Assembly: GCF_028748145.1 (NCBI RefSeq)
Contig: NZ_CP118181.1
Span: 627,433-691,432 of the forward strand
Length of the DNA stretch: 64,000 bases
From: Entomospira culicis
Lineage (GTDB): Bacteria; Spirochaetota; Spirochaetia; WRBN01
Reading direction: 5' to 3'
The notes beneath the pieces were generated by a model that searched no databases, had not been told where the DNA came from, and worked only from the letters and a program-made list of their open reading frames with translations. Shown one piece after another: positions 57,316 through 61,336 of the stretch. Positions within the stretch are counted from its first letter, which is position 1; each line of letters begins with the position of its first letter. The position numbers were made by a program, and so were the translations under genes.

Positions 57316-58356
57316 ATGATGATAGTTTTGGGAATTGAGAGCAGTTGCGATGAGTGTGCGGTGGCGCTGTTGGCAGGCGATGAGGTGGTGCATCAGGTCA
57401 TCGCCTCGCAGATTGAGGCGCATCAATGTTATGGTGGCGTGGCGCCAGAGGTGGCTAGCCGTCTGCATATCGAGCAAATTTCGACGGTGGTCGATCAGCT
57501 TTTCACTCAGTCGCCCTACCATCCAGAAGATATCGATCTCGTTGCCTACACCAATCGTCCTGGGCTGATGGGGAGTTTGTTGGTGGGGGCGACGTTTGCC
57601 AAACATTTTGCATGGGCGCTTGGAAAACCGTTTATCGCGGTGAACCATCTTTTGGCGCATCTTTTTGTGGCAAAACAGGAGCATCCTACATTGACATTCC
57701 CCTTTTTAGGGGTGATTGCCTCGGGCGGGCATACGGTGATTGCGGTGGTGGAGGGATACCAAGAAGATCAGGTGAAGGTGCTCGGCACGACGCTAGATGA
57801 TGCGATTGGTGAGTGTTTTGACAAAGTGGGCAAGGCGTATGGCTTGCCTTATCCGGCGGGTGTTCATGTCGATAAGTTAGCACAAACAGGCGATGCGCAA
57901 GCATATGCGTTTCCTTATCCTAAGCTCAATCCACGTTATGCCGGTGCGTACGATTGCTCTTATAGTGGACTCAAAAATGCGGTCATCAATCAAAAAGAGC
58001 AGTTTTTACGCGCCGATGCAGAAGATAGTTTAGAAAATATCATGGCGAGCTTCCAATATGTAGCGGTGCGCCAGCTGGTTAAGATTATCTTGAAGGCTAG
58101 CAATGATTTCTCTCTGCATCAGGTGGTGATAGGCGGTGGCGTAGCGGCCAATTCGGCATTGCGAGCGATGATACAAAGTTATACACATTTGAAGTTTTTT
58201 TCGCTCCCCTCTAAGCTCTGTGGCGACAACGGGCAGATGATTGCCTATTATGGTAAAGAGCTCTTTTTAGAAAGGGGAAAAACCAGCGACGCACTAGATA
58301 CCGGGGTGATACCGCGCGTCGATCTCTTTAAGTATCAACGACCTATCCCCTCTTAA
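57316..58356 (+). CDS. tsaD: tRNA threonylcarbamoyladenosine transferase TsaD
   Basis: 346 residues. TsaD transfers the threonylcarbamoyl group to A37 of ANN-decoding tRNAs. Motifs: VLGIESSCDECAVALLAGDE, AYTNRPGLMGSLLVGATFAK, AVNHLLAHLFVAKQEH (metal-binding HxxxH, in NHLLAH), VIASGGHTVIAVVEGYQ, TLDDAIGECFDKVGKAYGLP and GGGVAANSALRAMIQS, then LCGDNGQMIAYYG. The 3' end overlaps the stop of the convergent gene by 4 bases. Confidence 0.94.
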   Translation: MMIVLGIESSCDECAVALLAGDEVVHQVIASQIEAHQCYGGVAPEVASRLHIEQISTVVDQLFTQSPYHPEDIDLVAYTNRPGLMGSLLVGATFAKHFAWALGKPFIAVNHLLAHLFVAKQEHPTLTFPFLGVIASGGHTVIAVVEGYQEDQVKVLGTTLDDAIGECFDKVGKAYGLPYPAGVHVDKLAQTGDAQAYAFPYPKLNPRYAGAYDCSYSGLKNAVINQKEQFLRADAEDSLENIMASFQYVAVRQLVKIILKASNDFSLHQVVIGGGVAANSALRAMIQSYTHLKFFSLPSKLCGDNGQMIAYYGKELFLERGKTSDALDTGVIPRVDLFKYQRPIPS

Positions 58357-59261
58357 AAGTAGATACGCATGCCCGTAACTGTATGGTAGAAGGCACGCGA
58401 GCGCCCGCCATTGTCCATGGTAAATTCCAGCACGAGATGCCCCCAGTCGGCATCTGCGTCGACTCGCCACTCCACCTTCGTAATGCGTTGGCTGATAGAA
58501 CGATAAGGGCTCGCTATCTCTGCATCCGAGAGTGTGAAGCCTTCTGTATCTAGCTTGCGCGATCGGTTGGTGAGCGTGTCATGGAGATAAAGATGGATTC
58601 CATCTGGGCTGTAGAGCACTTGTTGCGTCGCTTGATGTAGGCTAATCAGATAGGGGAAATTTTGCGAAACCTTTTTTGTGGTTGCATCGAAGAGGTGGTT
58701 CATTGCGGGAAAGTTATCGGGGCGCTGTTCGATATGGTATTGTTCACCGCCCAAGTAGCTAATCATCGTAGAACTCGCTACATTGTCAAGAATAAGCGTC
58801 TCCTTACCCTGCTCTAGCCAGAGAATAGAAGCTGGCGTACTTATTGGCTCATAGAGGATTAATGCTGGTCCCATCTGCCCCCAAAAGTGCGCTGGCGGAA
58901 TGCTCCGGTGCTGTGTAGCGGTAATCAGGGTGGGGGTGCTAAGGTCATAGGAAAAGGAGAGTAAAAGGTTTTGCTGGCGTTGCCCATTCACCTCTTGAAT
59001 ATCATAAAGATGAATCATGCCTTGCCAGCTATTTTGCTCGCGCACGTGTAGCAAGTGTCCGTCGAGTGGCTCTTGCGACAAATGGGATACATTCTTCTCT
59101 TGTTGTACATTGTATGTATAGGCTAGCGCTCGTACCAAAGGATCACTAAGGATCTTTTGGGGTTGAGCATAGGCAAACGGTGCAAGCAAAAAGAGACTTA
59201 GTGCCAAGGCGACGCCAAGCGATCGGCGGGGGTTAGTCGTTAAATTCATCAAATTCTTCAT
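58353..59261 (-). CDS. Secreted protein of unknown function, coupled to a tiny acidic ORF
   Basis: 302 residues from ATG 59261 (GAGGA 8 nt upstream; ATG 59264 is also possible). The frame continues to 59294, but that part overlaps the small acidic gene and lacks an SD. The signal peptide ends LFLLAPFAYAQ. The mature part looks like a beta-rich fold with repeated strand pairs (SWQGMIHLYDIQEV; LILYEPISTPASILWLEQGK; IHLYLHDTLTNRSRKLDTEG), perhaps a propeller-like periplasmic protein. It ends YHTVTGMRIYF, an aromatic end that could also suit an outer-membrane protein. No family recognised. Confidence 0.6.
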   Translation of the reverse strand: MKNLMNLTTNPRRSLGVALALSLFLLAPFAYAQPQKILSDPLVRALAYTYNVQQEKNVSHLSQEPLDGHLLHVREQNSWQGMIHLYDIQEVNGQRQQNLLLSFSYDLSTPTLITATQHRSIPPAHFWGQMGPALILYEPISTPASILWLEQGKETLILDNVASSTMISYLGGEQYHIEQRPDNFPAMNHLFDATTKKVSQNFPYLISLHQATQQVLYSPDGIHLYLHDTLTNRSRKLDTEGFTLSDAEIASPYRSISQRITKVEWRVDADADWGHLVLEFTMDNGGRSRAFYHTVTGMRIYF

Positions 59262-59373
59262 CATTATAATCCTCGTCAAAATCTTCATCGTCAAATTCTT
59301 GCCAATCTTCTTCTTGAGGCATGAATTCCTCGTCTAGGTCGTCTTCAAAATCGTCTAAATCGTACTCTTGCAC
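59233..59373 (-). CDS. 46-residue extremely acidic small protein
   Basis: It starts at GTG 59373 with GAGGA about 8 nt upstream and stops at TAA 59235-59233. 27 of 46 residues are Asp or Glu and none is basic; aromatic Phe, Tyr and Trp are spaced through the acidic run (e.g. FDDEDFDEDYNDEEFDEFND). The gene lies between the mutase (19 bases upstream) and the secreted protein, whose start lies inside this ORF in another frame, so coupled translation is likely. Short acidic-aromatic peptides can be metal-binding or act as DNA mimics, but nothing specific is shown. The composition and a fitting SD support a real gene. Confidence 0.5.
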   Translation of the reverse strand: MQEYDLDDFEDDLDEEFMPQEEDWQEFDDEDFDEDYNDEEFDEFND

Positions 59374-59392
59374 CGTTATTTTCCTCGCTTTT

Positions 59393-60751
59393 CTAGCTAA
59401 ATTTGCCTAGAATGGCTTTTACTTCGTCGAGATGTTTGCTCAGTGTTGCCTGATCGTTAGCCTCCATGACGATGCGTAAGTAGGGTTCGGTGTTGGAGCT
59501 ACGAACATTGAACCACCAATTTGGGTACTCAAAGCGATAGCCGTCAAAGTCGAGGGTAGCTTGGAGGTCGCTGATGGCGGTTGCGTACGCTTTGAGGGCT
59601 GCGATAGCATCAGTTTTGGCGTTGATGACAAAGTTAATTTCCCCAGAGTTTGCATAAATGTCGATATTTTGGATGATGGCAGAGATGGGTTGATGCTCGT
59701 TTGTTTTGACCTGTTGTGCATTTTTGAGCACGAGCAACGAAGCTAAGATACCCGAATCACAGTTGAAGAAATCGCGGAAGTAATAGTGTCCCGCAAGCTC
59801 ACCCCCAACTACGGCATTAATCTCTTTCAGCTTGAGCTTGGCAAATGCATGTCCGACTTTCCACATATTTACATTAGCTTTACGTTGATTTTGTAGATAC
59901 TCGCTGACTCCACGGCTGGTACGAATATCGACAAGAACATTCTCCCCACTGGATACGCCTAATGCATTGGCAAGTACGGCAGTGATGATGTCGGGGCGGA
60001 TGAATTGTCCTTTTTCATCGATAAACATCGCACGATCGGCATCGCCGTCATAAATGATACCTAGATCGAGCTTTTCACGCTTTACCAGATCGATAATTTG
60101 CACTAAGTTCTTCTCTTCTAGTGGGTTGGGCTCATGGCTAGGGAAAGAGCCGTCGATGGTCTGGTTGATAGCATGAATTTCTGCGCCACGCTCCTTGAGT
60201 AGCTCTGGGACATAGAGACTTGCCATGCCGTTGCTGTAGTCGATACCGATACGTAAGCCGTGGAGAGTGGGAACAAATTTTTGGAGAAATTGAATGTAAT
60301 CGTTCTTGATATCCTTGGCGATAATTTTCCCTTTATTTGTATCAGTAACGGGGGTAACTTCTTGGGTGAGTACGAGTTGTTCTAGCTCTTTGAGACCGGT
60401 CTCACCACCTACAGGAATCGCCTTAGCACGCGAGATTTTGAGTCCATTATACTCTTTGGGATTGTGGCTAGCAGTAATTTGTACGCTGGCTTGTGCGTTA
60501 AAGTGTGCGGTAGCAAAGTAGACAGCCGGTGTAGTGGTTTGTCCTAAATCGACAACATTAGCCCCTGCGTCCGTGATACCTTGGCTTAGGTACTTAAAGA
60601 TCTCCGGTGAACTGATACGATCATCTCTACCGATATAAATTTCATTAACCTGCAAGAGCCTGGGCAGGAAAAATCCAATTTTATAGACAACATCTTTGTC
60701 ATACTCTTTATTATAAATGCCTCGAATATCATAGGCTTTAAATACACTCAT
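59393..60751 (-). CDS. Phosphomannomutase/phosphoglucomutase
   Basis: 452 residues, alpha-D-phosphohexomutase family. FKAYDIRGIYNKEYDKDVVY opens the protein; VQITASHNPKEYNGLKISRA holds the phosphoserine of the active site; DLGIIYDGDADRAMFIDEKG binds Mg2+; AVVGGELAGHYYFRDFFNCD reads sugar orientation; and VRSSNTEPYLRIVMEANDQA is the phosphate-binding loop. It interconverts hexose 1- and 6-phosphates, feeding glycogen (with GlgC at 28441) or surface glycans. SD AAAGGAG 5 nt upstream. Confidence 0.93.
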   Translation of the reverse strand: MSVFKAYDIRGIYNKEYDKDVVYKIGFFLPRLLQVNEIYIGRDDRISSPEIFKYLSQGITDAGANVVDLGQTTTPAVYFATAHFNAQASVQITASHNPKEYNGLKISRAKAIPVGGETGLKELEQLVLTQEVTPVTDTNKGKIIAKDIKNDYIQFLQKFVPTLHGLRIGIDYSNGMASLYVPELLKERGAEIHAINQTIDGSFPSHEPNPLEEKNLVQIIDLVKREKLDLGIIYDGDADRAMFIDEKGQFIRPDIITAVLANALGVSSGENVLVDIRTSRGVSEYLQNQRKANVNMWKVGHAFAKLKLKEINAVVGGELAGHYYFRDFFNCDSGILASLLVLKNAQQVKTNEHQPISAIIQNIDIYANSGEINFVINAKTDAIAALKAYATAISDLQATLDFDGYRFEYPNWWFNVRSSNTEPYLRIVMEANDQATLSKHLDEVKAILGKFS

Positions 60752-60786
60752 GGTTGCTCCTTTTTTAATACAATTTTCTCTTTAAG

Positions 60787-60815
60787 ATTATCGGCTAGTA
60801 CAAGGAATAACTCAA
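60787..60815 (-). promoter_or_regulatory. Promoter of the mutase gene
   Basis: On the minus strand, TTGAGT (60815-60810), 17-bp spacer, GATAAT (60792-60787). The sequence also contains GCCGATAA by overlap, but no sigma-28 -35 is present. Confidence 0.55.
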
Positions 60816-60851
60816 TCTTTTTTTATGTCTGATGATTTTCTTCAAAAATCC

Positions 60852-60880
60852 TTGATTTTTCTTATGGGACAGTGTATAAT
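60852..60880 (+). promoter_or_regulatory. Desulfoferrodoxin promoter
   Basis: TTGATT (60852-60857), 17-bp spacer, TATAAT (60875-60880). The leader is about 65 nt and ends in AAGGAG. Confidence 0.7.
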
Positions 60881-60952
60881 TATTGTAGATCTTTTGTAAA
60901 AAATTGTTATGAGAGATCCTGTTTATATCATATTATATGTAAGGAGATAAAG

Positions 60953-61336
60953 ATGAATAGAAGTGACATTTATCGTTGCCCGCATTGTGGGCGCGTGGTT
61001 TATGTAGTAGAGGCAGGGCACGGCGGGCTTACTTGCTGTGGACATGAGATGCAAGTACTTAAGGGGGGTGAGATTGACGGATCTACTGAAAAACACGTAC
61101 CTGTGATCGAAAAGATTGATACCGGCTATAAGGTTACTGTCGGCTCGGTCGCTCACCCGATGACCCAAGAGCACTACATTTCGTTTATCGAGTTGATTGT
61201 TGATGGTAACCACTATTCGCAAATGCTACAACCTGTTGCCAGCCCAGAAGCTATCTTCAATGTTGCACACGGTAAGAGTGTGGTTGCGCGCGAGTATTGC
61301 AACCTCCACGGCCTATGGCAGGCAACGTTGAGCTAA
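60953..61336 (+). CDS. dfx: Desulfoferrodoxin (2Fe superoxide reductase)
   Basis: 127 residues from ATG 60953 with AAGGAG 6 nt upstream; the open frame reaches 60872 but overlaps the promoter. It reduces superoxide to peroxide without making oxygen. The N-terminal desulforedoxin centre has Cys9, Cys12, Cys28 and Cys29, so this is the 2Fe class. The catalytic Fe(His)4Cys centre has His48, His68, His74, Cys116 and His119, and Glu46-Lys47 beside His48. Rubredoxin (51552) is a likely electron donor. It shows an oxygen-defence style typical of anaerobes. Confidence 0.95.
   Translation: MNRSDIYRCPHCGRVVYVVEAGHGGLTCCGHEMQVLKGGEIDGSTEKHVPVIEKIDTGYKVTVGSVAHPMTQEHYISFIELIVDGNHYSQMLQPVASPEAIFNVAHGKSVVAREYCNLHGLWQATLS

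What the first reader, a model, noticed from the sequence alone, without database searches (positions are those of the whole stretch)
59233..59373. Unnoticed 46-residue protein, 59% acidic with no basic residue
A GTG start with a proper SD, a stop just inside the next gene, and a composition far from random argue for a coding gene. It appears translationally coupled to a secreted protein. Its role could be metal or cation buffering, DNA mimicry or control of the downstream start.
Basis: partly seen in the sequence, partly recalled or inferred. Interest (0 to 1): 0.5.

Follow-up and report, generated by a model that had tools for sequence, protein, structure and literature searches.

The report
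Orphan small acidic spirochaete protein gene
A mosquito-gut spirochaete carries a tiny, probably real gene for a 46-residue protein made mostly of acidic residues with evenly spaced aromatic ones; no relative of it was found and its job is unknown.

Summary
The ORF is as described: minus strand, 59373-59233, GTG start, 46 residues, 27 acidic (59%), no K/R/H. It is very unlikely to be chance: none of 20,000 dinucleotide shuffles of its DNA reached 27 acidic residues in any frame, and no other ORF of 30+ codons in 64 kb of window, 400 kb of the same genome or 888 kb of 80 relatives' loci reached 40% acidic. The third codon position varies freely while the first two stay GA, so selection seems to act on charge. 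It lies 19 nt after a phosphomannomutase gene and overlaps a secreted orphan protein's gene by 29-32 nt. That overlap is too long for ordinary termination-reinitiation, and the downstream start is not hidden in RNA structure, so "translationally coupled" is weakened. No relative was found in 394 Spirochaetia genomes or in Pfam, NCBIfam, PHROGs or PDB sequences. Best reading: a real, lineage-restricted, disordered polyanionic microprotein that docks on a basic partner through spaced aromatics. That it is a translated gene is fairly likely (about 0.75); the function is inferred.

The parts
59233..59373 (-). 46-aa acidic ORF (GTG start 59373-59371, TAA stop 59235-59233)
   Evidence: 27 of 46 acidic, no K/R/H, strong codon phase
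59382..59386 (-). SD-like GAGGA, 8 nt before the GTG
   Evidence: duplex energy -8.0 kcal/mol over the 20 nt upstream
59320..59322 (-). internal in-frame ATG (Met18) with GAGGA at 59331-59327; possible second start giving a 29-aa form
   Evidence: duplex energy -5.9 kcal/mol; functional use is inferred
59270..59274 (-). SD-like GAGGA inside the acidic ORF, serving the downstream gene
   Evidence: duplex energy -5.9 kcal/mol for ATG 59264 and 59261
58353..59264 (-). downstream gene for a predicted secreted protein (signal-peptide-like N-terminus judged by eye), orphan; starts at ATG 59264 or 59261, overlapping the acidic ORF by 32 or 29 nt
   Evidence: coordinates; no relatives; low-confidence model
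59393..60751 (-). upstream phosphoglucomutase/phosphomannomutase gene, ending 19 nt before the GTG
   Evidence: (four PGM_PMM Pfam domains), gap

Best explanation
A real, lineage-restricted microprotein gene read with its neighbours. Ribosomes start at GTG 59373, and possibly at the internal ATG 59322. The product is a flexible polyanion (net about -27) with aromatic or leucine residues every few positions. It most likely acts in trans by docking on a basic surface of a partner protein (nucleic-acid mimicry in the broad sense), carboxylates giving charge complementarity and spaced aromatics acting as anchors. Shown: open frame, codon phase, charge-level constraint on the sequence, SD, position. 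Inferred: translation, disorder, partner binding; the partner is unknown.
For: Codon position 2 is A in 34 of 45 codons while position 3 is near-random (entropies 1.54, 1.01, 1.89 bits), and 0 of 20,000 shuffles match. D and E come out 15:12, as expected if GA is held and N drifts. A decayed-GAN-repeat model keeps the frame open without any K/R/H in only 0.73% of 20,000 runs. TRF finds only a 19-bp, two-copy match, not a microsatellite. Aromatic/Leu gaps are more even than in shuffled proteins (p = 0.009, chosen after seeing the sequence, uncorrected). The three GAGG motifs in the ORF and its leader each sit at SD distance from a start codon. Genome-wide, Glu before GAN avoids GAG (0.40 against 0.64, p = 5e-44) and the ORF follows (2 of 7). 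The single-sequence AlphaFold model is of low confidence, mean pLDDT 62.9, pTM 0.21, compatible with disorder. Acidic residues run the full length, beyond what a leader-peptide role would need (inference).
Against: No relative in 394 Spirochaetia genomes beyond the genome itself, and none in families or PDB sequences. Without congeners, purifying selection between species is untested. Glu codons depart from the genome's usage (GAG 3 of 12 against 61%, p = 0.013), only partly explained by the SD-avoidance context. No amphipathic helix signal (hydrophobic moment at 100 degrees, p = 0.66 whole, 0.48 best 18 residues). No partner, expression or phenotype is known.
Confidence: 0.4

Rival explanations
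1. Translated, but the product matters little: a young orphan (proto-gene) tolerated between two genes, with no selected function yet.
For: No relatives of the ORF or of the downstream protein; PMM itself was not found in the only other genome of the family; Glu codon usage departs from the genome's.
Against: Extreme, consistently held charge and the 0.73% decayed-repeat null suggest selection on the peptide.
Confidence: 0.2
2. Cis-acting acidic ORF: nascent Asp/Glu runs destabilise the ribosome (intrinsic ribosome destabilisation, as for mgtL and mgtQ), and drop-off frees or withholds the downstream start that lies inside the ORF, so that Mg2+ or ribosome state sets the amount of the secreted protein.
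For: 17 of the first 30 residues are acidic; such residues early in a protein destabilise or pause ribosomes in E. coli and Salmonella (PMC8092293 passages; PMC11282234 passages). The downstream SD lies within the ORF. L31 is present; ABC-F-like proteins are present but below the EttA cut-off.
Against: No attenuator-like RNA structure (z = +0.88, 160 of 200 shuffles fold at least as well). The downstream start is as open as the upper quarter of 166 long-ORF starts (0.55, 75th percentile 0.54). The downstream gene is not a recognisable Mg2+ transporter. Known examples need only two or a few acidic residues.
Confidence: 0.2
3. Not translated: a purine-rich spacer whose open frame is a coincidence or a decayed trinucleotide repeat.
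For: The DNA contains weak, imperfect repeats with spacings that are multiples of 3 (65-77% alike); GC is 36% against 45.6% for the window.
Against: 0 of 20,000 shuffles, period-3 power, SD at the GTG, no comparable ORF in about 1.35 Mb examined.
Confidence: 0.15
4. Cation (Mg2+, Ca2+ or metal) buffer peptide.
For: 27 carboxylates in 5.9 kDa.
Against: Would have to be present at very high copy to matter; GTG start and a position inside an operon do not suggest that; no His or Cys for soft metals (inference).
Confidence: 0.05

Closest known systems
mgtQ of Salmonella (translation-aborting acidic small ORF between mgtC and mgtB)
   Same: Small ORF with Asp/Glu codons and its own SD lying between two genes of an operon, upstream of a gene it might control (PMC8092293, passages)
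   Different: mgtQ is 8 residues with two acidic codons, sits in a 219-nt intergenic region and works through alternative stem-loops; here 46 residues, 27 acidic, overlap with the next gene and no stem-loop evidence
CrsL of mycobacteria (small disordered regulator of CarD and RNA polymerase)
   Same: 5.7 kDa and disordered alone, folding on its partner; a model of how such a microprotein can work in trans (PMC12709188, passages)
   Different: CrsL homologues are reported from actinobacteria with a hydrophobic motif; no sequence relation was tested here
DNA-mimic proteins such as SPO1 Gp44
   Same: Use of carboxylates to imitate nucleic acid (PMC8208478, start of abstract in search listing only; the role of carboxylates is recalled)
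   Different: A phage protein; no similarity to any PHROGs family found here

Membership tests
Ribosome-destabilising acidic leader/small ORFs (mgtL, mgtQ) | Acidic residues within the first about 30 codons | tested here: met
   17 of the first 30 residues acidic
Ribosome-destabilising acidic leader/small ORFs (mgtL, mgtQ) | Alternative RNA structures that hide the downstream start | tested here: not met
   Fold z = +0.88; downstream start mean unpaired 0.55, about the 75th percentile of 166 starts
Ribosome-destabilising acidic leader/small ORFs (mgtL, mgtQ) | Shown ribosome drop-off affecting the downstream gene | not testable with these tools
   Needs reporter or toeprint experiments
Translationally coupled gene pair (termination-reinitiation) | Spacing near -4 to +3 nt, coupling lost by about -25 nt overlap | tested here: not met
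   Overlap is 29 or 32 nt; spacing rule from review PMC12548453
Known protein families (Pfam, NCBIfam, PHROGs) | Profile match | tested here: not met
   0 families at E up to 10, 1 and 1
DNA-mimic proteins | Binding to a DNA-binding protein in place of DNA | not testable with these tools
   No partner known

The most novel reading that the evidence does not exclude
An extended self-aborting acidic ORF: the whole 46-codon polyacidic stretch acts as a ribosome-stability sensor whose drop-off clears the start codon embedded in it, tying synthesis of a secreted protein to Mg2+ or ribosome state without any RNA switch.
Probability: 0.1. Interest if true: 0.65.

Novelty: new member of a known kind. 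Interest (0 to 1): 0.3.

Why it matters
Orphan microproteins of extreme composition are easily missed by annotation and homology searches. This one has unusually clear internal evidence of charge-level selection and would be a clean test of whether polyacidic small ORFs work as proteins in trans or as ribosome-destabilising elements in cis.

Tried and rejected
Conservation next to PMM: of 80 PMM-bearing loci, neighbours were inspected in 29 and no acidic ORF follows PMM; all 80 were included in the composition census, with 0 of 7556 ORFs at 40% acidic or more.

Weak matches in 17 other Spirochaetia genomes (E 0.016-0.99) were translated. Most carry stops or lie in long frames of other genes. 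Eight of them come from one genus (g77, unnamed) and are homologous places of one another with 45-aa open frames; in the two stored in the readable direction (L085, L090) stops flank and interrupt the match. My script read some loci on the strand opposite to the match, so that part is a judgement from those two, their likeness to one another and the stop counts. They were rejected as homologues.

Paralogue in the same genome: a protein search found only itself; a short acid-aromatic pattern gave 6 places in all, two of them the ORF itself.

Amphipathic helix: no signal. RNA switch: no signal. Secreted-protein fold: model too poor (mean pLDDT 43), so no fold search was run.

Literature: searches listed no paper on this ORF; 'Entomospira' with 'small protein' gave 0 papers.

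Full report
What is there. The ORF reads on the minus strand from GTG 59373 to TAA 59233. It encodes 46 residues, 15 Asp and 12 Glu, no Lys, Arg or His, with 6 Phe, 2 Tyr, 1 Trp and 2 Leu. It starts 19 nt after the stop of a phosphoglucomutase/phosphomannomutase gene (Pfam domains; gap) and ends 32 or 29 nt inside the next gene, whose likely starts are the adjacent ATGs at 59264 and 59261. All three are on one strand, and the scan shows no minus-strand terminator-like site in 58300-61000, so one transcript is plausible (inference).

Is it chance? No, by every internal test. In 20,000 dinucleotide shuffles no frame reached 27 acidic residues (maximum 20), and only 880 had any open frame. Period-3 power was 10.6 against a maximum of 3.4 in 5000 shuffles. 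Among 580 window ORFs of 30+ aa it alone is at least 35% acidic and alone lacks K/R/H. In 400 kb of the same genome 0 of 3482 such ORFs, and in 80 relatives' loci (888,155 bases) 0 of 7556, reach 40% acidic. Of 89,300 windows of 46 residues in ORFs of 250+ aa in the 400 kb, the most acidic has 21 acidic residues and is a PE repeat. Nine of the 3482 ORFs lack K/R/H, but none of them is more than 16% acidic.

What kind of constraint? A is at codon position 2 in 34 of 45 codons, while position 3 is nearly random. Within the 27 GAN codons the third base is A 9, T 8, C 7, G 3, giving D and E about equally: the charge is kept and the residue drifts. A model in which GAN codons decay at positions 1 and 2 gives an open frame without basic residues in 0.73% of 20,000 runs, although 37% stay open. 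Against this, the DNA does show loose repeats at multiples of three bases (65-77% alike), so an origin by repeat growth is possible; TRF sees only a 19-bp match. Glu codon usage is off (GAG 3 of 12 against 61% in 228 long ORFs, p = 0.013). Part of that is context: before a GAN codon the genome's GAG fraction falls from 0.64 to 0.40 (p = 5e-44), which I read as avoidance of internal SD sites. The ORF has GAG in 2 of 7 such places and in 1 of 5 others. The three GAGG motifs in the ORF and its leader sit before GTG 59373, before the in-frame ATG 59322 and before the downstream ATGs. This pattern was noticed after the fact.

Whose genome? The window lies in a contig of 1,639,587 bases of a 1,769,585-base genome in 4 contigs. 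The plasmids of Entomospira culicis BR151 are given as 98,591, 28,402 and 3,005 bp (PMC11636382, first of two parts of the text read). The sum with this contig is exactly 1,769,585, and the window's 45.6% GC fits the reported 45.8%. The identification rests on that arithmetic. Two sister species are sequenced but not held: an order-level search covers only 2 genomes, and the best PMM relative outside is 58% identical. The genus-level conservation test could therefore not be made.

Relatives. A protein search of 394 Spirochaetia genomes matched 18, one being the genome itself at 4.7e-20; the other 17 have best E of 0.016-0.99 and were judged to be chance (limits of that check are told under Tried and rejected). 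The other genome of the family has no match to the ORF, to PMM or to the downstream protein. The downstream protein has no match in 393 other Spirochaetia genomes or in Pfam, NCBIfam or PHROGs. In four nearest Spirochaetales loci (L002-L005) and in L007, PMM is followed by a different gene that looks like a nucleotide-sugar epimerase (name recalled from its N-terminal sequence), so the PMM-acidic-secreted order is peculiar to this lineage as far as seen.

Coupling. A review (PMC12548453, passages) reports best coupling at -4 to +3 nt and, from one study, none at -25 nt; it also names pairs coupled over longer overlaps (MS2 coat-lysis, -50 nt, through RNA unfolding; phage fr coat-lysis, -38 nt). 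Here the overlap is 29-32 nt. Unfolding would need a masked start, but the region folds no better than shuffles (z = +0.88) and the downstream start is about as open (0.55) as the 75th percentile of 166 long-ORF starts. Coupling is thus not excluded but has no support. A reverse effect, elongating ribosomes passing over the embedded start, is possible (inference).

How it most likely works. Trans reading (0.4): a polyanion with evenly spaced aromatic/Leu residues (p = 0.009 for even gaps, post hoc) binding a basic partner. The predicted structure is of low confidence (mean pLDDT 62.9, pTM 0.21, no alignment) and there is no amphipathic helix signal, so it is probably disordered alone. CrsL is a precedent for a 5.7-kDa disordered regulator (PMC12709188, passages). 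Cis reading (0.2): early acidic residues destabilise or pause ribosomes in enteric bacteria (PMC8092293 and PMC11282234, passages). L31 is encoded here, and two long ABC-F-like proteins are present but under the EttA cut-off. The acidity runs the whole length, far beyond the two acidic codons that suffice in mgtQ, and this favours the protein reading (inference). A proto-gene (0.2), non-coding DNA (0.15) and a cation buffer (0.05) make up the rest.

Verdict. A sound observation and probably a real small gene, orphan and of unknown job. Interest is moderate to low until the two sister genomes and an expression test are examined.

Noticed in passing
window, whole genome: Contig lengths add up exactly to Entomospira culicis BR151 (chromosome contig 1,639,587 plus plasmids 98,591, 28,402 and 3,005 equals 1,769,585).
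   Followed up: yes
window 59393-60751: The phosphomannomutase was not found in the only other held genome of the family, and its best outside relatives are Spirochaetales MAGs at up to 58% followed by mostly Bacteroidales at about 50%; lateral transfer is possible.
   Followed up: no
L118-L137 (own genome, 400 kb sample): Glu codons before a GAN codon use GAG at 0.40 instead of 0.64 (p = 5e-44), a strong codon-pair effect that looks like avoidance of internal SD sites.
   Followed up: partly
window 58353-59264: The downstream secreted protein is itself an orphan: no match in 393 other Spirochaetia genomes.
   Followed up: partly
L118 1705-2266 on the reverse complement: Three consecutive Gly/Val-rich ORFs without basic residues, looking like a repeat array (or its antisense); a PEPEP repeat lies in the same stretch.
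   Followed up: no
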